Shown: one piece after another, positions 7,683-17,693 of the stretch
Numbering within the stretch: position 1 is the stretch's first letter
Layout of the letters: every line of letters starts with the position of its first letter
Origin: a virus
Direction: 5' to 3' (one strand)
IMG/VR virus record: IMGVR_UViG_3300021168_000001
Coordinates: 1 to 64,000 of that record
DNA: 64,000 bases
Notes under the pieces: generated by a model
What the model was told of the DNA's origin: nothing
Databases searched by the model: none
What the model saw: the letters and a program-made list of their open reading frames with translations, nothing else
Translations under genes and position numbers: made by a program

Positions 7683-7883
7683 ATGCCAACCAAAGAAGTG
7701 ATGGACATCCGGGAAGCTGCCGAGTATCTCGGGATCAGTGCGGATACGCTCTACAAGTATCTCAAAGAGCGTATCCTCCCGGCCTTCAGGATGGGCAACC
7801 GCTGGAAGCTAAAGCGTTCTCTTCTCGATCAATGGATGGCGGAGCAATGCGATAAATATCAGGTAAGGAACGATGGCAAATGA
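7683..7883 (+). CDS. Excisionase/MerR-type helix-turn-helix protein
   Basis: 66 residues matching the HTH_17 type: IREAAEYLGISADTLYKYL is the helix-turn-helix, followed by the wing FRMGNRWKLKRSLLDQWM. Members bind DNA as small regulators or excisionases. With no integrase in the window, a regulatory role is more likely than excision. The gene overlaps the following HNH gene by 11 bases. Confidence 0.8.
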   Translation: MPTKEVMDIREAAEYLGISADTLYKYLKERILPAFRMGNRWKLKRSLLDQWMAEQCDKYQVRNDGK

Positions 7884-8595
7884 CTACACAGCCGTGCCAG
7901 AACGATTGTGTCCGCATTGCGGGCAATCGTCATTGCGCGCACCTTTCTACGTCCGCAAGAATGGTAGGCTCTCGACATATTGCATTGAATGCGAGAAAGA
8001 TAAGGCGGCGGAACGATACACGGATCGAAAGAACAATCTAGCTCATAAAGTAGGGATTCTCTGTCTTTGCGGATGTGGACAGATAACACGAGTCTCAACC
8101 TCATCAGACCGCAATAGAGCAATCAAGGTTGGCGATCCATTGCCATACATCTATGGTCATTCGCGGCGCCTCTCATCCGTCGAATATGTCATTGAAGATC
8201 GTGGTTACAAGACGCCATGCTGGATTTGGCAACTTTCCAAGGACGACGAAGGCTATGGATTCATAACAGTCCCACCAAGGGAAAGCGGGTCTAGGTCTGG
8301 CCGCGCTCATGCTGTTTATTACGAAAGGCGATTTGGTCCCATCCCTGAAGGAATGATCCCGGACCATCTCTGCCGCGTCCATTCTTGCGTAAATCCAGAT
8401 CATATAGAGCCGGTCACTCCTGCGGTTAATACGAGACGCGGACTCTCAGCCAAACTAGATGAACAGGCGGTTGCAGAAATCAGACGCGCATTGCGGCTCG
8501 GTGAAAAGCAATATTCTCTGGCTGAGCGGTTTGGGGTTACCCAAACGATGGTGAGTCGGATAAAACTCAACAAAGCATGGGTTGGTGTGGAGTGA
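7873..8595 (+). CDS. HNH endonuclease with zinc ribbon and C-terminal HTH
   Basis: 240 residues in three parts. An N-terminal zinc ribbon has CPHC then CIEC. A central HNH_3-type domain runs HAVYYERRFGPIPEGMIPDH, then C-x5-C and an NPDHIEPVT segment. A C-terminal segment (AEIRRALRLGEKQYSLAERF, then VTQTMVSRIKLNKAW) reads as a helix-turn-helix. This combination is typical of free-standing homing endonucleases, with the HTH giving target recognition. The last four bases overlap the helicase start as GTGA. Confidence 0.8.
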   Translation: MANDYTAVPERLCPHCGQSSLRAPFYVRKNGRLSTYCIECEKDKAAERYTDRKNNLAHKVGILCLCGCGQITRVSTSSDRNRAIKVGDPLPYIYGHSRRLSSVEYVIEDRGYKTPCWIWQLSKDDEGYGFITVPPRESGSRSGRAHAVYYERRFGPIPEGMIPDHLCRVHSCVNPDHIEPVTPAVNTRRGLSAKLDEQAVAEIRRALRLGEKQYSLAERFGVTQTMVSRIKLNKAWVGVE

Positions 8596-9980
8596 GCGAC
8601 TACGAATATTCACTTCCAGCAGCGATCGATTCTGAGCGCGCAGTGCTTGGTGCTATTCTCCTGGACGATACATGCATTATCGAAGTCCAGGACAAGCTAG
8701 ATCCAGAAGATCTATATGTTAATTCCCATCAGCGTATCTTGCGACGGATGTATGAGCTTAACCAAGAGAAGATTGCAATCGATATTGTCACACTTTCAAA
8801 TAAACTCTCACAACACAAAGAAGTGGAATCTATAGGGGGTGTTGCTTTCCTCGCTTCACTCACCGAAAATCTCCCACGTCGTCCCGTGATTTCTGACTAT
8901 CTAAAAATAATCAAGGATAAGGCGCAGTTGCGGCGACTGATGTCCATTTGTTCAGCCGCCATCGCGCAAGCCGAGGACCAGAGCGACCCGGCACTGGACG
9001 TGTTGAGTGCTCTCTCCACTAAGATCGAAAACCAACTCACGAATGCCATCTCCGCAACATTTGAGCGTGCCGGCGATTTTCTTCACATCGAATTTCCCAC
9101 GCCGGAAAAGATGGTCGAGAAGAACGCTAGACAGACCGGCGTGGAAACTGGCTTTCGGCGCTTCGATGAAATGACATGCGGACTACAGCGCAAGGAACTC
9201 ATCATCATCGCCGCCAGACCCTCTATGGGAAAGACGTCACTCATGGGGGCGATCGCGGAACACGTGGGCCTGACCTGCGAGTCAATTGTGGGCATCAAGT
9301 CGCTCGAAATGTCGAAAGAGGCTCTGCTTCGCAGAATGATCTGCTCTCGGGCACGCGTCCCATCCCAGGACCACCGTAGCGGAGAAATGATCAATCACCC
9401 ACGCATGATGACCGACTTCGGCGAAGCCTACGAAGAGATCGCGCGTGCGTCGACCATCTACATCGATGACTCGCGCGACACCGCCAAAGGCATCGTTGTC
9501 AAGGCGCGGTCGATGAAGAAGAAACTCGGCCTGGACATTCTGATGATCGACTACCTTGGCCTGTTCCAGCACGATGACCGGAGAGGCGGCCATAACCAGA
9601 CGGCCGAAGTTGGGCTCGACTGCTTGATGATGAAGTGGCTGGCTCAGGAACTCGATATCCCCATAGTGCTCCTCTGCCAGCTCTCCCGTGCTCTTACTAA
9701 GCGTGAAGACAAACGGCCGGTCCTCGCCGATCTGCGCGACAGTGGCAACATCGAAGAGCACGCTGACATGGTGTCGTTCATTCACCGCGAAGGATACTAC
9801 GAACCGAAGGAAGAAAAGCTCAAGAATCAGGCCGAGTGGATCATCGCAAAACAAAGGAATGGCCCGGTGGGAACAATTGATCTTCACTGGGATGCGGAGT
9901 ACACCCGTCTTTCCGATCCGATCACGGCGGAGGACCTCAACACCCAAACTCAATACGACATGTGGAGTGCGATTCGATGA
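8592..9980 (+). CDS. dnaB: DnaB-type replicative DNA helicase
   Basis: 462 residues from GTG 8592, chosen because it overlaps the upstream stop like its neighbours (an ATG five codons earlier is possible). The N-terminal DnaB domain (AAIDSERAVLGAIL) and a linker precede a RecA-like motor with Walker A ARPSMGKTS (208-216). Walker B is the ILMIDYLGL segment and the DnaB-conserved LCQLSR and LADLRDSGNIEEHAD follow, then HREGYYEP. It unwinds DNA 5'-3' at the replication fork. No primase was recognised, so priming may depend on the host. Confidence 0.92.
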   Translation: MSDYEYSLPAAIDSERAVLGAILLDDTCIIEVQDKLDPEDLYVNSHQRILRRMYELNQEKIAIDIVTLSNKLSQHKEVESIGGVAFLASLTENLPRRPVISDYLKIIKDKAQLRRLMSICSAAIAQAEDQSDPALDVLSALSTKIENQLTNAISATFERAGDFLHIEFPTPEKMVEKNARQTGVETGFRRFDEMTCGLQRKELIIIAARPSMGKTSLMGAIAEHVGLTCESIVGIKSLEMSKEALLRRMICSRARVPSQDHRSGEMINHPRMMTDFGEAYEEIARASTIYIDDSRDTAKGIVVKARSMKKKLGLDILMIDYLGLFQHDDRRGGHNQTAEVGLDCLMMKWLAQELDIPIVLLCQLSRALTKREDKRPVLADLRDSGNIEEHADMVSFIHREGYYEPKEEKLKNQAEWIIAKQRNGPVGTIDLHWDAEYTRLSDPITAEDLNTQTQYDMWSAIR

Positions 9981-10129: not shown

Positions 10130-10482
10130 GTGACAAGCCGATTGTCAGCGATTTGCAGGCGAGGTATTCGACGCTTATGTCTTGGCTGGATGATGTTACA
10201 CTTCGCCCAAGAATGTCTCCAGTATTGAAGGGTTTAACTGAGGATGGCGTCCGTCTAATCGAGCGCACTTCCGCCGCCGAAGCCAAACTCGCCGCTCTCC
10301 AGGCCATCGTCGACGAGCAGGCTGAAGACCACTCGTTATGGTTCACTCTTGACAACCCGCTAGAAAGCCCTCAATTGCAGCGGGCGCTCCGGCGCCTGCA
10401 CGCGGCCATCGAAGGCAAGACTCCAGACCAATGCGCTCTGGAGGCTCTGGACAGAATCGCGAAACACAGAGGTTCCCAATGA
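10126..10482 (+). CDS. Hypothetical protein
   Basis: 118 residues, start overlapping the previous stop. Helical throughout, with an Ala-rich segment at about 45-70 (TSAAEAKLAALQAIVDEQAE) that could be a short coiled coil. No domain recognised. Coupled at its 3' end to the following HNH-like gene. Confidence 0.65.
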   Translation: MSDKPIVSDLQARYSTLMSWLDDVTLRPRMSPVLKGLTEDGVRLIERTSAAEAKLAALQAIVDEQAEDHSLWFTLDNPLESPQLQRALRRLHAAIEGKTPDQCALEALDRIAKHRGSQ

Positions 10483-10799
10483 AGCGCTCCCCACTCAAGA
10501 GGTTCACTCCGCTGCGCCATCGGCGCTCCAAACCACGCCGAGGCGAGCCGACGCCCGAACATAAGGGCTCGGTTCGCCGGCGCGTCTACGCTCGTTCCGG
10601 AGGCCGCTGCGAGTTGAGATTCAAGGGCATTTGCCTCGGCGACGTCATACTGCCATTCGACGGTGGTCTATACGAACGCGGCCACCTCGCCCATCTCAAA
10701 TCACGCGGCGCCGGAGGCGAATTCACTGAAGCCAACACACGCTGGTCGTGCTGGAGATGCCACCTCATTGGTATGCACCAGAAAGGATTGAAGCCATGA
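10479..10799 (+). CDS. HNH-type nuclease, small
   Basis: 106 residues from ATG 10479, overlapping the upstream stop. A very basic N-terminus (KRSPLKRFTPLRHRRSKPRR) leads into an HNH-like fold: RCELRFKGICLG, then RGHLAHLKSRGAGGEF with the His motif, and ANTRWSCWRCHLIGMH with the second Cys pair and terminal His. It resembles small recombination or NinG-type nucleases as well as HNH enzymes. It is part of the coupled operon rather than an obvious insertion. Confidence 0.7.
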   Translation: MKRSPLKRFTPLRHRRSKPRRGEPTPEHKGSVRRRVYARSGGRCELRFKGICLGDVILPFDGGLYERGHLAHLKSRGAGGEFTEANTRWSCWRCHLIGMHQKGLKP

Positions 10800-11449
10800 A
10801 GCACAAATGGAAAGGCCAGCAATTAGGCGGCAGCCCGGTCGAAGAAACCTCGACGGAGTGGATCTGCTACTGCGATAACTGCGGAACCGAAAGGAACGAC
10901 GACAACAAAGACGAGGTGTGCATCCCGGTTAGCTGGTCTGATTTCAGGCGCGCGGTTCAACTCCAGGATCCTGCACAAGTACAGCGCGCCGCCACTCTTC
11001 TCAGATCAAACAAGACCATGTTCCTTCATGCATACCGCGAAGAACCGATTGTTTATAGATCGATTCAGGTAGCTCTCGATAATGGCCTGCGCGAAGAGGA
11101 TGCGTGGCTTCTGGCTGTGATCGGGTTGCTAGAAGAAAATCGAAAACTGTTTCAAAACGCGCAAACTCTAACAATGTTGGCGCCTCCGCCAATCTACGCA
11201 CCAGAGCGACGTCCTATTCAATGGAACGAAGAGGCGGCATCCATCCCGTTGCTTACGGAAGAGCACTATTTAACCGATGATGCTATCCTTCCGTCCCTTA
11301 CTCTGCCCAATCCATGCGAGATCCGTATAGCGATCACAGCTAGCCATGTGAGCCTGGCCATCGGACAGCGCGACTTTAGTTGGAAGCGCGGCTGCCCCGA
11401 TCTCTCAGGCGCAGGAACATTTCTCGATTCTGCGGAGCCAGATAGATGA
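10796..11449 (+). CDS. Hypothetical protein with Cys pair
   Basis: 217 residues from ATG 10796, overlapping the previous stop. A CDNC knuckle sits near residue 26, followed by helical segments and a Pro-rich middle (APPPIYAPERRPIQW). No family recognised. Its TGA overlaps the ATG of the DNA methyltransferase, so the two are probably co-translated, but a functional link is only inferred. Confidence 0.65.
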   Translation: MKHKWKGQQLGGSPVEETSTEWICYCDNCGTERNDDNKDEVCIPVSWSDFRRAVQLQDPAQVQRAATLLRSNKTMFLHAYREEPIVYRSIQVALDNGLREEDAWLLAVIGLLEENRKLFQNAQTLTMLAPPPIYAPERRPIQWNEEAASIPLLTEEHYLTDDAILPSLTLPNPCEIRIAITASHVSLAIGQRDFSWKRGCPDLSGAGTFLDSAEPDR

Positions 11450-13770
11450 GCTGCGACGTTATCATCGGTGACGCTATCGAGAAGCTGCGCACGCTGCCGC
11501 CCGAGTCCGTTCACTGCGTCGTTACGTCTCCTCCCTATTTTGGTTTGAGGGACTACGACATAGACGGACAGATCGGACTCGAGCCGACTATCGCGGAATA
11601 CCTTCGCAAACTGGTCGACGTGTTCCGCGAGATCCGCCGTGTGCTGCGCAGCGACGGAGTCCTTTTTGTTAACATGGGCGATACTTACAACGGTCAGAAC
11701 GAACGGGCCCCAAGCGTCCTGCCAAACGGCCAGTACAGCTTCCGGTCAGGAAGCGGACCCAAGGTACGCGTGGCCGGCCTAAAAGCCAAGGACCTCATCG
11801 GCATGCCCTGGCGCCTCGCGCTAGCCTTGCAGGACGATGGCTGGTACCTCCGCCAAGACATCATATGGTGTCTTTCAGGAGGGACATACGTCTACGCTCG
11901 CACGCAAAATGGCGATATGCCCATAATGGTCCGTGATCTAGCTCGGCTCAAGCCGAGCACGGTCCAGCTGTGGAACGGCCAGAAGTGGACTCGCTTACTC
12001 GGAACTTCCAAGTCGAAGCGTCGCGGTACGGAGTTGGAAATAGTCCTCCGTTCAGGCGAACGCATCTCCTGCACTCCGACTCACAGATTCCCGACTACGC
12101 GCGGGCTTTTGGAGGCACAAGAAATCCGAGCAGGCGACTGTCTAACCTCGTGTCGACTGCCACAACCCAATAATCCCAAAACCAGTGTGATCGATGAGGA
12201 TGCTGCATGGCTTGCAGGTCTCTACGTGGCCGAGGGTTCAATGTCCGGAGACACGATCCAGATAGCAGGACACGCTAGGGAGATTTCGCGGTGGATACGT
12301 CTCGGCTCGATCGCGGCTAAATATGGCGGCGCATGCACTCATTCGATCAAGGGCAACACAATGAACATTCGCCTCTACGGTAAAGTCTTGGTTGCCATCA
12401 TTCGGGAGTTAGTCACCGGGCGCACGGCGCGGGACAAGGGCTTTGCTCCTGTCGTATGGAGGCACTCCGATTCTTTTGTCAGTTCGATGTTGAATGGATA
12501 TTTGTCGGGCGATGGTGCCTATAGCGAAGAGAGGTGGCGTCTCGGATTCACGAGGAATTACAACCTGGAACGGGATCTCCGCACTGCCTGCGCTCGACTC
12601 GGCTACACCATCACTCTCAATCCATCCTCAGTCCTCTACAAAGGGAAGAAGCGTCCCACGTTCAGAGGAGAAATTCGATTCGAGCGAAGCGGCCATCACA
12701 ACGAAAAGGATCGCAACGAAGTAATCGAAGTTCGGAAGGCGCGGTGTCGAGAAGTCTACGACCTCGAGGTAGAGGATGAACCGCATGTCTTCGCGCTCGC
12801 GTCTGGCGTGCTCACTCATAACTCAAAGAAAAATCCGATGCCTGAGAGCGTTCGCGACCGCTGCACCAAGTCCCACGAATATATCTTTCTGCTCTCAAAG
12901 TCGGAGGAGTACTTCTTCGACATCGAAGCCATTAAAGAGAAGGCTAGCGGCACGGCTCACACGCGCGGCGGCGGCGTGAACCCAAAGGCCACCAAACATG
13001 GCCAGAACTCACGCATGCGCGTCGACCGCGATCCGCGGCACGCAAAGAAAGACACCGGAGTTGGCTGGGGCCGACTTTCGAAGCTGGATCCAGATAACAA
13101 TCAGAGAGACCGCAATCGCATCATCGGCCGAAGCAGCAAACAAAACCCATCATTTTCTGCTGCCGTGAATGAGCTCGTTACACACCGCAATAAGCGGAGC
13201 GTCTGGACCTTCGCCACATCGCCCTATCGAGAGGCACATTACTCGACCTTTCCTGTCACTCTTCCCGACATCTGCATTCGCGCCGGCACTAGCGAACATG
13301 GGTGCTGCGCTGTCTGCGGACGGCCGTTCGCGCGGCTCATCGAGGCATTCGACACCGGCTTAACTCAGAAGACTGCCAACGGCTGGGATATCGAGGAAAG
13401 ATCGCACGGATCGTCCCATCGCGATGGAAGAGACGGAAGAACAACAGAACGTCCGATCATTGCAACTCGCACTATCGGATGGGAATCGGACTGCTGCCCT
13501 CTCTTCGGTGGAACTGTGATCCCTTGCGTCGTCCTCGATCCTTTTGGCGGATCAGGAACCACTGGCCTGGCCGCCACGAAGCTGGGACGCAACTGCATTC
13601 TCATCGACTTAGACCCTAAGAACATTCCTTTGATCGAGAAACGACTTCGCTCTGCCGTCCCTGGAACACCCAAGCCTCGCCAGAGGAAGCTTGGCGCAAA
13701 AGAGCCAGTCGACTCTACATCATTGGTAACCAAATGCGGTGACCGTGGACACACCGTCGCGCGGATTTGA
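11446..13770 (+). CDS. DNA methyltransferase precursor (beta class) split by an intein
   Basis: 774-residue precursor. The N-extein (1-141) has catalytic motif IV TSPPYFGLRDY (27-37). The C-extein (460-774) has motif I DPFGGSGTTGLAA starting at 698, and ILIDLDPKNI after it. Motif IV before motif I is the beta-class order of N4-cytosine or N6-adenine methyltransferases. Removing the 318-residue intein (142-459) leaves a 456-residue enzyme of normal size. The insertion splits the conserved segment IIW / SKKNPMPES, next to the active-site face. A Cys pair (CCAVC, precursor about 621-625) lies in the C-extein. Likely role is modifying phage DNA against host restriction. No matching restriction gene was seen. 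Confidence 0.92.
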   Translation: MSCDVIIGDAIEKLRTLPPESVHCVVTSPPYFGLRDYDIDGQIGLEPTIAEYLRKLVDVFREIRRVLRSDGVLFVNMGDTYNGQNERAPSVLPNGQYSFRSGSGPKVRVAGLKAKDLIGMPWRLALALQDDGWYLRQDIIWCLSGGTYVYARTQNGDMPIMVRDLARLKPSTVQLWNGQKWTRLLGTSKSKRRGTELEIVLRSGERISCTPTHRFPTTRGLLEAQEIRAGDCLTSCRLPQPNNPKTSVIDEDAAWLAGLYVAEGSMSGDTIQIAGHAREISRWIRLGSIAAKYGGACTHSIKGNTMNIRLYGKVLVAIIRELVTGRTARDKGFAPVVWRHSDSFVSSMLNGYLSGDGAYSEERWRLGFTRNYNLERDLRTACARLGYTITLNPSSVLYKGKKRPTFRGEIRFERSGHHNEKDRNEVIEVRKARCREVYDLEVEDEPHVFALASGVLTHNSKKNPMPESVRDRCTKSHEYIFLLSKSEEYFFDIEAIKEKASGTAHTRGGGVNPKATKHGQNSRMRVDRDPRHAKKDTGVGWGRLSKLDPDNNQRDRNRIIGRSSKQNPSFSAAVNELVTHRNKRSVWTFATSPYREAHYSTFPVTLPDICIRAGTSEHGCCAVCGRPFARLIEAFDTGLTQKTANGWDIEERSHGSSHRDGRDGRTTERPIIATRTIGWESDCCPLFGGTVIPCVVLDPFGGSGTTGLAATKLGRNCILIDLDPKNIPLIEKRLRSAVPGTPKPRQRKLGAKEPVDSTSLVTKCGDRGHTVARI
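11869..12822 (+). mobile_element. LAGLIDADG-type intein inside the methyltransferase
   Basis: Residues 142-459 of the precursor (318 aa). Splicing motifs are complete. Block A begins with Cys (CLSGGTYVYA), block B has the TxxH motif (ISCTPTHRF), block F is REVYDLEVEDEPHVFA, and block G ends GVLTHN followed by Ser as the +1 nucleophile. Two LAGLIDADG-like helices are present, LAGLYVAEG and LNGYLSGDG, each with an acidic residue near the end, indicating a resident homing endonuclease. Cys1, terminal His-Asn and Ser+1 are the residues needed for standard class 1 splicing. Confidence 0.92.
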
Positions 13771-14124: not shown

Positions 14125-14961
14125 TTACTTCGCGATCGCAGTCACGTTGAGGTGAACTTTGAACTGCCCAAGGTCCGCTTCCAGCTGCGCGAGATCAAGG
14201 AGCGATGGAGACAGCCCATTGGCCTCGATCCAGTCCTGAGAAAGAACCACGAAAGCTTCATCAACGTAATCGGCGAAGAAGTTGTGGCTCGCCTTCAAGA
14301 CACTTCCCCAGGTGAGGCAGGTTTTCGTTATCGGGCTGCTTGCCACGAACGGGATACAATGCCCTCCCCAGCCCCCTGGTTGCCCGGCGCTTCCATAGAT
14401 CCCGCCATCTGGAACCGTCCAATCGTTGGCGCCCTGGCAACTGACCGGAAGGGCCACACCGGTATACAGGTTGCCGAAGATGTCGATCGCATCTTGCACT
14501 TCATCGGCATTGGTCCAGTCCACCGCCATGTACGCAAGGATTTTATGTCCTCCGACTCCGGTCGACTGCCAGTAGTTGAGGAACTGCAGCATGTCCGTGC
14601 CGTTGTCGGTGTTCGGATCTCCAGGAACGTATCCGCCTACGTCCTCATAGGCCTTCAGGATGTCGGCGTCGGCTGGCAGGACTGGCTTGCCAGCATAGAA
14701 ACTCCATTGCTGGATCATATGACCTGCCGCGGCCTCAACACAGCAGCCCAGTTGATCGTTCAAATACATTGGCAGCGCCTGTGCTTCAGCTAATTTCGTG
14801 ATCCACGAAACCTCTGCCGGTGGCGACGTTGGCAGGTTGGGTATCGGCTTACCAAGAGGGCGCAGCCTGTACTTGCCAAATTGAAGGATGGTGGAGTCTT
14901 GCCGGCGATCGAGAACCACCGGCTTTTTCCCCAACTTTGCTAGCGTGCCATTCACAAACAT
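14125..14961 (-). CDS. Papain-like cysteine peptidase-fold protein
   Basis: 278 residues. A papain-like triad can be traced: Gln70 and the nucleophile region NDQLGCCVEAA (Cys73 or Cys74), a late His in GGWGGHCIPF (His201), and LTWG (Trp218) in place of the usual Asn-Ser-Trp-Gly. The Asn of the triad is not obvious, so activity is uncertain. Such proteins occur in tailed phages near the end of the structural block. A role in virion maturation, host wall or protein processing is inference. It is the last leftward gene before the terminator. Start overlaps the upstream HNH gene by 10 bases. Confidence 0.65.
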   Translation of the reverse strand: MFVNGTLAKLGKKPVVLDRRQDSTILQFGKYRLRPLGKPIPNLPTSPPAEVSWITKLAEAQALPMYLNDQLGCCVEAAAGHMIQQWSFYAGKPVLPADADILKAYEDVGGYVPGDPNTDNGTDMLQFLNYWQSTGVGGHKILAYMAVDWTNADEVQDAIDIFGNLYTGVALPVSCQGANDWTVPDGGIYGSAGQPGGWGGHCIPFVASSPITKTCLTWGSVLKASHNFFADYVDEAFVVLSQDWIEANGLSPSLLDLAQLEADLGQFKVHLNVTAIAK

Positions 14962-15740
14962 TGTCCTTGTTCTCCTCTGTCCTGGTGATTAGTCGCGCCT
15001 TTTCGCATGTTGTCGAGCGCCCACAGCGGTTGAAGGTTACTGTAGTGAAAGCACTGCCTCTGCTGCTGAGCGTCAAGTATGTCGAAAAACGCGCATGGTT
15101 TCTTGTGGTCGACATGCCACTGCCCGTAATTAGACCATGACATTCCTGGCTTAAACTGACTTTCTAGATGAGCTACCAAATCAGCCGTCGTGCAACCGGC
15201 AATCCTCTTGATCGCAAGACTATGGATTGATCTATGCATTAAAGCCTGATGCAATCTGGTACGAAGAATCGTTAACATTCTAAATCTTTCGTCTGTATGG
15301 TAATTCCTCCGATTTCGAGTCGCTGTCTTTTCCTTTCCCCGTTCGCGTGATCTATTCTTTCGATCTTTCGCTGCTCGAACATATGCGCATGACGCGCAGA
15401 TGGCATTAGGTTTGGACGTCATTTTAACTTTACACACGCAGCATGCTATGCGAATCCGATGACGAGTCGAATATGTGCAGTTCCAGCAAATCTTTGTAAC
15501 TCTATTTTTGGTTTCCTTACTGCACTTTATGCAGTGCGGTCTCTTAACCCCAAAACCCTCTTTGTTATATGTCGCCTTATCAATCAATCCCTTTTCTTTT
15601 AAATAGTATGAGGCGCGGTAGGCCTTTACGGCAGCGCGATTAGCGGCCTTCCATTGTTTGGAAACCGCTAATCTGTGATCGCGCTGCTCGGGCGTTTCTC
15701 GCTCAGCTCGCCATTTTCTCGTTTCTCCCGCCGTATTCAT
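14952..15740 (-). CDS. HNH homing-type endonuclease
   Basis: 262 residues. The N-terminal half is basic with repeated CxxC pairs (CIKC, CWNC, CCVC, CASC) forming two zinc ribbons. The C-terminal half carries the HNH core WHVDHKKPCAFFD followed by NLQPLWALDNMRKG, a signature of phage homing endonucleases. The region is AT-richer than its neighbours, suggesting acquisition. The ATG overlaps the stop of the glycosyltransferase gene (ATGA). Confidence 0.85.
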   Translation of the reverse strand: MNTAGETRKWRAERETPEQRDHRLAVSKQWKAANRAAVKAYRASYYLKEKGLIDKATYNKEGFGVKRPHCIKCSKETKNRVTKICWNCTYSTRHRIRIACCVCKVKMTSKPNAICASCAYVRAAKDRKNRSRERGKEKTATRNRRNYHTDERFRMLTILRTRLHQALMHRSIHSLAIKRIAGCTTADLVAHLESQFKPGMSWSNYGQWHVDHKKPCAFFDILDAQQQRQCFHYSNLQPLWALDNMRKGATNHQDRGEQGQCL

Positions 15741-16864
15741 ATCATTAGCTTCTCATGCGGCGCTACGATATTGGGGTCGTCCTCTCCGCGGGAAATAAAG
15801 TACCGACGTAGATCGTCGCGCAACTCCCATTTCTCGGGATCGAACTGCCAGATGCCCTGATAGTCAGGATGCAGATCGCGATAAGGATCGAACTTATTCT
15901 TGGCTAGGATTACGTCGCGGGAGCTGTAGCCACGACGAGTCTTCGATCCGTGAAACATGTGCATGGCCATCGCGTCGACATATCCCACGTTCCGCTTGAT
16001 CCGCTTTGCCTTTTCGCCCCACGCCAGAACATAGTCTTTATAGGCCGGAGCATATTTCTGCGAGTGAATATCAGGCGGCTCCTGGCCGACAAGCTGGTAG
16101 GCCATGTACCAATCTCCATGTCCAAGGATGCAGCGGTCGAGCATGCCGCCGACAGCTTCATAAGCAGAACGCCGAAAAGCATATGCGCCTCCGGTTGCGC
16201 CGACACCCCGTAGAAACTCTCCTTCGATGTGCGAAGGCTCGCCTGGCAACATCGCTTCCTCGTAGTGATGGTGATGATGGTGATGATGGTGGTGCTTGTT
16301 GAACTTGCCATCCGGACCGACGATTCCGTTGTGGTACTCTTTCGAGACCCGGTATCCGTTGTTTATGTAATTGAACAAAAAGGAGCTATTCACCCTGTAA
16401 GGCGCGTTCGCCTGTCCATATACCCCACCAGTCACATCAAGGTAGCTTGAGAATGGCTGCAGCCAATCGTAATGCTGAAGCTGATGGATCGTTTCGAGAG
16501 CCCACCCGACCGTCACGATGTGAAAATCCGCATCGCACGTCATCCCGTATTTCCAGTTTGGCGGAAACAACCGTTGGACAATAACGGACTGGATATTTTC
16601 CTTGAAAAAGCCTTCATGCGTAGTGCGCAGCTGCAGATCAAGCGGATTGTCCGGCGAGGTCACTTCCCAGGGGCGATCACCAAAAGCCAATTCGCCGACA
16701 TACAACTGCACATTCGCCTGGTGAGCCAGGTGATCGCGCAGTTTGTTCATAGTTTCGCGGCGCGTCCTCCAGCGGAATGGGTTGGTATACGCCACAGCAA
16801 CATGCAATAGAGCGTCGTTTGACCATTGCTGCCAAGGCAGGTGGACGTCTGGATGACGATTCAT
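15737..16864 (-). CDS. Glycosyltransferase-like protein with natural His10 tract
   Basis: 375 residues from ATG 16864. The longer frame up to 17164 runs through the terminator upstream and was rejected. The N-terminal half resembles GT-A glycosyltransferases: VAVAYTNPFRWRTRRETM then LYVGELAFGDRPWEV and a DxD motif in GMTCDADFHIV (DAD at 111-113). A later segment (GATGGAYAFRRSAYEAVGG, then LGHGDWYMAYQL) matches the acceptor and catalytic region of GT2-like enzymes. Ten consecutive histidines sit at 191-200 between the two halves. It may decorate virion proteins, phage DNA or the host surface. Donor unknown. Confidence 0.7.
   Translation of the reverse strand: MNRHPDVHLPWQQWSNDALLHVAVAYTNPFRWRTRRETMNKLRDHLAHQANVQLYVGELAFGDRPWEVTSPDNPLDLQLRTTHEGFFKENIQSVIVQRLFPPNWKYGMTCDADFHIVTVGWALETIHQLQHYDWLQPFSSYLDVTGGVYGQANAPYRVNSSFLFNYINNGYRVSKEYHNGIVGPDGKFNKHHHHHHHHHHYEEAMLPGEPSHIEGEFLRGVGATGGAYAFRRSAYEAVGGMLDRCILGHGDWYMAYQLVGQEPPDIHSQKYAPAYKDYVLAWGEKAKRIKRNVGYVDAMAMHMFHGSKTRRGYSSRDVILAKNKFDPYRDLHPDYQGIWQFDPEKWELRDDLRRYFISRGEDDPNIVAPHEKLMI
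16265..16294 (-). repeat. CAY triplet run encoding ten histidines
   Basis: Thirty bases of mixed CAC and CAT codons read in frame within the glycosyltransferase gene. Mixed codons argue for selection or slow divergence rather than a very recent slippage event. Confidence 0.85.
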
Positions 16865-16943
16865 TGTTTGTCCCCGGAACCTTTCGGAAATGATGCTTGA
16901 GGAGAGTATAAGCCCAAGAATGGAATTATTCGGTTGCAGACAC

Positions 16944-16979
16944 AAAAAAACTCCCGAGCACCGCGAAGGCACCCGGGAG
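16944..16979 (-). terminator. Rho-independent terminator, leftward
   Basis: On the minus strand a 12-bp stem with G-T wobbles (CTCCCGGGTGCC paired to GGTGCTCGGGAG, loop TTCGC) is followed by seven T. It lies between the lipoprotein-like gene and the glycosyltransferase, ending the main late transcript before the final three genes. Confidence 0.85.
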
Positions 16980-17015
16980 AATCTGCACCTACAACCTGTG
17001 AAGCCAACTATACCA

Positions 17016-17693
17016 TCAGGCAGCTTCGAGCCGCGGAATACCTGCGAGGATCGCATCGGCCTTTTCGTCCCCGGTCGGTGCGCTGATAATTTCGTTGATC
17101 TTTGCGGCATAGTGCTTCGCATCGAGCGGATGCTGTTCGGTCGGGATCGCCGCCAGCATTGCACGCGCCTCGCCGGCGCCGTTCGTCTCGAGAGAAGTCA
17201 AAGCGGGCAGCACATTCGCCCAGGCCTCGAGCTGCGATAGCACAACCTGTGCGAGATTCTGGATAATGCCAGCCAAGGGAGCGGGAACGCCAATATCACC
17301 GAGCAGCTGCTGCATGGTATCGGTGGCAGCCTTGATCGCCTCTTCGATTTTTCCAAGCAATGTCGTACTCGGATTTGCCTGGTACTCGGCCACCATCGCC
17401 TGGATGTCTTTGATGGCGGCCATGCCCTTGGTAGCAATTTCGGCAATCAACTGAGCTGCCGCTGCCAATGCGGGATCGCCTCCGAGCGCAGCCGCGATAG
17501 CAGTGAGGATAGTTCCAAGGGTTGCCGAGACCAACGGAATCGTTGCCTCGATCGCGTTAAGCCAACCAGGAAGGCCGGCACACCCGGTAGCCATCATGCA
17601 CCCCGCGAAGAGCAGCAAGAGCAGGCCGGACATTTGAATGGCGCGCCGATACGGATAGGCTCGCCGTGCGAGAAGCATGAGGTACAGTTTCAT
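17016..17693 (-). CDS. Putative lipoprotein / membrane-anchored helical protein
   Basis: 225 residues. A basic N-terminus (ARRAYPYRR) precedes a hydrophobic run with lipobox-like sites (LLLFAGC and MATGC, Cys near 32 and 38). The rest is Ala-rich and helical with long amphipathic stretches. It could be an outer-membrane lipoprotein of the lysis system (o-spanin-like) or a superinfection-exclusion protein. Length and composition are not diagnostic. It lies directly after the holin-like gene and before a terminator. Confidence 0.6.
   Translation of the reverse strand: MKLYLMLLARRAYPYRRAIQMSGLLLLLFAGCMMATGCAGLPGWLNAIEATIPLVSATLGTILTAIAAALGGDPALAAAAQLIAEIATKGMAAIKDIQAMVAEYQANPSTTLLGKIEEAIKAATDTMQQLLGDIGVPAPLAGIIQNLAQVVLSQLEAWANVLPALTSLETNGAGEARAMLAAIPTEQHPLDAKHYAAKINEIISAPTGDEKADAILAGIPRLEAA

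What the first reader, a model, noticed from the sequence alone, without database searches (positions are those of the whole stretch)
11869..12822. Full intein with LAGLIDADG endonuclease in a phage DNA methyltransferase
All splicing blocks are present (Cys1, TxxH, terminal His-Asn, Ser+1), plus two LAGLIDADG helices. The insertion splits a conserved segment of the methyltransferase next to the catalytic face, so methylation would depend on splicing. Inteins usually occupy polymerases, helicases or terminases. A modification enzyme is a less common host.
Basis: partly seen in the sequence, partly recalled or inferred. Interest (0 to 1): 0.75.

Follow-up and report, generated by a model that had tools for sequence, protein, structure and literature searches.

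The report
Self-splicing intein in phage DNA methylase
A phage DNA-methylating enzyme is interrupted by a self-removing, self-spreading protein segment (an intein); such inteins in phage methylases were already published, but this one belongs to a widespread family, not described in the papers I could search, whose members sit at three slightly different positions within one small loop of the enzyme.

Summary
ORF 11446-13770 is an N6/N4 DNA methyltransferase (Pfam E=5.5e-35) interrupted at 11869-12822 by a canonical 318-aa class 1 intein with a double-LAGLIDADG homing endonuclease. All blocks are intact; the AlphaFold model has pLDDT 94.9 and its best PDB matches are VMA inteins. Intein-free homologues read straight through the junction.

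The interpretation needs correcting on rarity. Methylase inteins in mycobacteriophages were published in 2016 and 2023; I find they occupy the same loop, three codons further on, with a dissimilar intein.

The family occupies three registers (IIW^, IIWxK^, IIWxKxN^), always with Ser or Cys at +1, although empty sites usually have His/Ala (first register) or Pro (the others) there. A single origin of the second register is rejected. Two inteins from contigs assigned to different phyla are 960/969 nt identical while their host proteins are only 66% identical: recent lateral spread.

Splicing and DNA cleavage remain inferred. Verdict: real, a new member of a known kind, in an interesting family.

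The parts
11446..13770 (+). Precursor ORF: N6/N4 DNA methyltransferase with in-frame intein (774 aa; predicted spliced product 456 aa)
   Evidence: PF01555 E=5.5e-35; phrog_67 DNA methyltransferase E=1.2e-58
11446..11868 (+). N-extein (141 aa), with TSPPY motif IV, ending ...RQDIIW
   Evidence: matches intein-free phage methyltransferases over 95-100% of its length in most hits
11869..12822 (+). Intein, 318 aa, class 1, Cys1 ... His317-Asn318
12205..12240 (+). First LAGLIDADG helix, DAAWLAGLYVAEGS, acidic residue E122
   Evidence: helix 110-122 in model
12472..12522 (+). Second LAGLIDADG helix, SSMLNGYLSGDGAY, acidic residue D215 (invariant)
   Evidence: helix 201-215 in model
12823..13767 (+). 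C-extein (315 aa): Ser+1, conserved SKKNPMPESVRDRCTKSHEYIFLL and SAM-binding DPFGGSGTT
11857..11868 (+). Upstream half of the target segment (gacatcatatgg, DIIW); inferred homing site
12823..12849 (+). Downstream half of the target segment (SKKNPMPES); inferred homing site

Best explanation
A canonical class 1 intein carrying a bipartite LAGLIDADG homing endonuclease sits in the beta4-beta5 (Loop-45-like) segment of a phage N6/N4 DNA methyltransferase. SHOWN from sequence or model: complete intein blocks, HINT plus LAGLIDADG fold, exact in-frame junction at a conserved loop, homologues without the insert, and a family of inteins confined to this loop in methyltransferases. INFERRED: (1) the intein excises itself by N-S acyl shift at Cys1, transesterification to Ser+1 and cyclisation of Asn318, giving a 456-aa methyltransferase; (2) the unspliced precursor is inactive because the insert interrupts the loop that enters the DNA; (3) the endonuclease cuts intein-free alleles around DIIWxKxNxMP and copying from the intein-bearing allele spreads it, together with a splicing-competent +1 codon; (4) the intein is a selfish passenger rather than a regulator.
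For: Blocks and conservation. Pfam and NCBIfam hits. AlphaFold pLDDT 94.9 and Foldseek to VMA inteins, PI-SceI and I-DmoI. Intein-free homologues. Family found with intein-only queries, every member in a methyltransferase in this loop. Intein more conserved than extein (73 vs 44% to L009). L037 and L038 inteins 960/969 nt identical, 8 of 9 differences synonymous, while exteins are 66% identical and flank identity decays away from the junction. Intein presence scattered over the methyltransferase tree: 30 changes against 33.4 for shuffled labels. Purifying selection: dN/dS well below 1 in three pairs, although dS is near saturation. Loop homology to CcrM Loop-45.
Against: No splicing or cleavage data. 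The endonuclease could be inactive in this copy. Nothing excludes conditional splicing. The collections are mostly metagenomic, so host phyla come from assigned bins, and L037 may be a mis-binned contig.
Confidence: 0.93

Rival explanations
1. The intein splices conditionally and acts as a post-translational switch on methylation, for example delaying DNA modification.
For: It interrupts a segment aligned with the DNA-entering loop of CcrM, so splicing would switch activity; the intein core is conserved.
Against: Patchy presence, recent lateral transfer and an intact endonuclease are what a selfish element predicts; intein-free versions are common.
Confidence: 0.06
2. The insert is a decayed intein: the gene is a broken methyltransferase.
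For: No experiment shows splicing; relatives L070 and L071 have lost the penultimate His (TCN, TAN).
Against: All splicing and endonuclease residues are intact in the window copy, the frame is open through 774 codons, and family pairs show low dN/dS.
Confidence: 0.04
3. The segment is a normal domain of the methyltransferase, for example a target recognition domain.
For: It lies in frame, in a methyltransferase.
Against: 77 homologous sites read straight through DIIWxKxNxMP; HINT/LAGLIDADG fold; the same block sits at three different registers.
Confidence: 0.01

Closest known systems
Mycobacteriophage DNA methylase inteins (DNMT-1/DNMT-2, Kelley et al. 2016 PMC5050341; Dorothy_75/PopTart_63 family, Gosselin et al. 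2023 PMC9957025)
   Same: Full LAGLIDADG intein in a phage N6_N4 methyltransferase; inserted in the homologous loop (IAWLYG^SGFPKS against IIW^SKKNPMPES; profile alignment E=8.8e-11, ungapped in the loop); patchy and laterally spread.
   Different: Insertion three codons further downstream; intein not similar by BLASTP (E=0.25) and ending Gly-Asn, not His-Asn; hosts of Mycobacterium only in those studies, whereas this family occurs in contigs assigned to several phyla.
VMA inteins with homing endonuclease (TliVMA 7qss, PI-SceI 1vde)
   Same: HINT splicing domain with inserted two-LAGLIDADG endonuclease; best structural matches.
   Different: About 13-21% identity; host is a V-ATPase subunit; longer.
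CcrM (6PBD), as model of the host enzyme
   Same: Loop after IVW with RKSNPMPN aligns with DIIWSKKNPMPES.
   Different: CcrM has DPPY, this enzyme TSPPY; CcrM's 83-aa C-terminal domain was not looked for; no intein; the target base of the window enzyme is unknown.

Membership tests
Class 1 intein | N-terminal Cys/Ser nucleophile | tested here: met
   Cys1, 32 of 32 aligned members
Class 1 intein | Block B TxxH | tested here: met
   TPTH; H72 invariant, T69 T/S
Class 1 intein | C-terminal Asn with penultimate His, and Ser/Thr/Cys at +1 | tested here: met
   HN^S in the window; Ser or Cys at +1 in all members whose frame is intact
Class 1 intein | HINT fold | tested here: met
   pLDDT 94.9; Foldseek to inteins E down to 4.6e-19
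Class 1 intein | Autocatalytic splicing | not testable with these tools
   needs expression
LAGLIDADG homing endonuclease | Two LAGLIDADG helices with acidic residues | tested here: met
   E122 (E/D) and D215 (invariant), helices 110-122 and 201-215; matches I-DmoI
LAGLIDADG homing endonuclease | Cleaves the empty allele and homes | tested here: inconclusive
   Indirect only: 960/969 nt identical inteins in divergent exteins, scattered presence
N6_N4_Mtase (PF01555) | [D/S]PPY and FxGxG motifs in beta order | tested here: met
   TSPPY in N-extein, DPFGGSGTT in C-extein; E=5.5e-35
Published mycobacteriophage methylase intein allele | Same insertion register | tested here: not met
   Three codons apart in the homologous loop
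Published mycobacteriophage methylase intein allele | Intein sequence similarity | tested here: not met
   BLASTP E=0.25 to the Lilac precursor

The most novel reading that the evidence does not exclude
This intein family is tied to one DNA-contacting loop of phage methyltransferases but has repeatedly shifted register within it by two or four codons, each time supplying its own +1 nucleophile (Ser/Cys) where empty sites usually have His/Ala or Pro. Short-range, repeated movement of an intein to a new insertion site is thought to be very rare (Goodwin et al. 2006, PMC1635734), and carriage of the +1 residue in a conversion tract has only been speculated (PMC11855218).
Probability: 0.55. Interest if true: 0.6.

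Novelty: new member of a known kind. Interest (0 to 1): 0.42.

Why it matters
The single intein is ordinary in kind. The family is useful: it gives about 40 independent inteins in one enzyme loop at three registers, plus the published mycobacteriophage inteins at a fourth, so how inteins gain a new insertion site and obtain a usable +1 residue can be studied by comparison and tested. It also suggests that this DNA-entering loop of phage methyltransferases is an intein hot spot, and gives a compact set of inteins for splicing work.

Tried and rejected
Single-sequence queries in viral contigs gave only one locus each; alignments were needed. No relative in plasmids. In the phage collection only remote inteins (portal, ribonucleotide reductase and others). 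I first considered that the register differences were boundary errors; rejected, because Cys1 and His/Cys/Ala-Asn ends are clear and all three spliced exteins have the same length IIWxKxNxMP. Conservation of K and N in the empty sites cannot be used: the DNA pattern demanded them; only positions 1, 3 and 5 are free in it. One relative (L087) seems to carry a frameshift near its intein start and was left out of the trees. A first alignment used L002 coordinates off by three bases at each end and was redone. Literature searches for register-shifting inteins found none, but the library lacks most subscription journals and preprints.

Full report
CHECK. ORF 11446-13770 (774 codons, +) reads MSCDVIIGD...TSPPYFGLRDY...RQDIIW | CLSGGTYVYA...ASGVLTHN | SKKNPMPESVRDR...DPFGGSGTT.... 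The insert is 318 aa at 11869-12822, exactly as reported; the ligated product would be 456 aa. Pfam gives N6_N4_Mtase (5.5e-35) for the host and Intein_splicing (1.6e-9) plus LAGLIDADG_3 (1.5e-4, marginally below its cut-off) for the insert; NCBIfam intein_Cterm is above its cut-off, intein_Nterm below. An AlphaFold2 model from 16 family members has mean pLDDT 94.9 and pTM 0.92. Its best solved relatives are inteins with homing endonuclease: TliVMA 7qss (E=4.6e-19, TM 0.74), PhoVMA, PI-SceI, PI-PfuI; then I-DmoI. It is the only intein found in the 103-kb virus record, which has no second, empty copy of the target pattern.

EMPTY HOMOLOGUES. tblastn of the whole ORF against 50,697 phage records finds 229 with a match and none in which one place covers 80% of the query; the best rows join the two extein parts and leave out the insert. 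The N-extein alone matches 236 records, 218 of them over at least 80% of its length. A degenerate DNA pattern for DIIWxKxNxMP returned 80 viral loci; 77 sites fit. At the three positions that the pattern leaves free, position 1 is His 45, Ala 16, Ser 12, Asn 4; position 3 is Pro 69, Ser 1; position 5 is Pro 69, Cys 1. (The K, N and MP positions are fixed by the pattern and say nothing. The 77 were not dereplicated.)

THE FAMILY. Queries made from intein sequence only (so not selected for host gene) found 27, 41 and 38 overlapping viral contigs and 5 contigs of bacterial assemblies labelled Chloroflexi, Hydrogenedentota, Kroppenstedtia (Bacillota), Phycisphaerae and Fermentithermobacillaceae (the last carries only the first 40 residues, at the contig end). 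Every one is in an N6/N4 methyltransferase and in the same loop. Three registers occur: a, IIW^[S/C]K (the window; 33 non-redundant); b, IIWxK^[S/C]N (7); c, IIWxKxN^CMP (3). In all three the spliced extein has the same length, and the first extein residue after the intein is Ser or Cys, which is uncommon (position 1) or rare (positions 3 and 5) in empty sites.

REGISTER CHANGES. On a maximum-likelihood tree of 43 inteins the register labels need 7 changes against a minimum of 2. Holding the seven b inteins together is rejected (AU p=3.5e-78; b+c p=1.7e-6). The groups were named before the tree was built; p-values of this size should be read only as 'rejected'. A clear case is L085 (register b) with L061 (register a): sisters at 100/91 support, inteins 68% identical, exteins 48%. 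How the shift happens is not shown. The registers fall where a nucleophile replaces a variable residue (positions 1, 3, 5); Lys at position 2 is present in every intein-bearing member whose frame is intact.

MOBILITY. The inteins of L037 (MAG labelled Hydrogenedentota) and L038 (Kroppenstedtia guangzhouensis; the same element is IMG/VR L060) differ at 9 of 969 nt, 8 synonymous, while exteins are 66% identical and flank identity falls from about 11-12 of 15 nt next to the junction to background within about 120 nt. The MAG label could be a binning error, but the two host genes are clearly different. Across 113 methyltransferases (41 with intein, 72 empty) intein presence needs 30 changes against 33.4 for shuffled labels, that is, almost no phylogenetic signal; that tree is a quick one with many weak branches.

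WHERE IN THE ENZYME. phmmer aligns RQDIIWSKKNPMPESVRDR with CcrM NDIVWRKSNPMPNFKGTR (6PBD). In CcrM, Loop-45 (residues 119-133) enters between the separated strands from the minor groove and contacts bases; Met122, Pro123, Asn124 and Phe125 are named (PMC6787082; PMC13092597). By my numbering from that alignment register a lies at W116^R117, b at K118^S119, c at N120^P121: the start of this loop. A 318-aa insert there should block activity; this is inference by homology, and the SPPY motif (against DPPY in CcrM) means that the target base may differ.

PUBLISHED RELATIVES. Mycobacteriophage methylase inteins are in Kelley et al. 2016 (PMC5050341, Table 1: DNMT-1, 7; DNMT-2, 4) and Gosselin et al. 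2023 (PMC9957025: 21 inteins in the Dorothy_75/PopTart_63 family). I fetched CactusJack, TootsiePop, Lilac and the intein-free PopTart_63. The inteins sit at IAWLYG^SGFPKS; the empty sequence is IAWLYGQGMPKS. Profile alignment of the present family with PopTart_63 is significant (E=8.8e-11) and ungapped through the loop, so that intein sits three residues past register a. The inteins themselves are not similar by BLASTP and end in Gly-Asn. So at least two dissimilar inteins use four positions in one five-residue stretch.

JUDGEMENT. The element is a canonical intein and the host class is already published, so: new member of a known kind. The family-level pattern (one loop, three registers, repeated shifts, nucleophile differing from the empty-site residue) is the interesting part and bears on the view that ectopic intein movement is very rare (PMC1635734) and on the suggestion that inteins bring their own +1 residue (PMC11855218).

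Noticed in passing
window 7873-8595 (+): HNH endonuclease gene (PF13392 HNH_3 E=3.2e-10; phrog_826 E=2.2e-27) directly upstream of and overlapping a DnaB-like helicase gene at 8577-9980; possibly a free-standing homing endonuclease.
   Followed up: partly
window 10431-10799 (+): Small ORF with weak similarity to HNH endonucleases (phrog_333, E=1.5e-6).
   Followed up: no
window 14952-15740 (-): ORF with Cys-rich N-half and a WHVDHKKP-like stretch that looks like an HNH-type endonuclease by eye; only a weak match to phrog_28061 of unknown function.
   Followed up: no
window 15737-17164 (-): Predicted protein with a run of ten consecutive histidines (KHHHHHHHHHHYEE); no Pfam or PHROG match.
   Followed up: no
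L070 and L071, intein C-termini: Family members ending TCN and TAN: penultimate His replaced by Cys or Ala, with Ser at +1. Natural cases for testing splicing without that His.
   Followed up: no
L081:2501-3529: Register-b intein with an extra 22-residue segment in the splicing domain (SERKRKSQQSRSARYRSGLAKV; same contig as L033).
   Followed up: no
L132 and L145: Two empty target sites in one contig about 0.9-1.0 kb apart, perhaps tandem methyltransferase genes.
   Followed up: no
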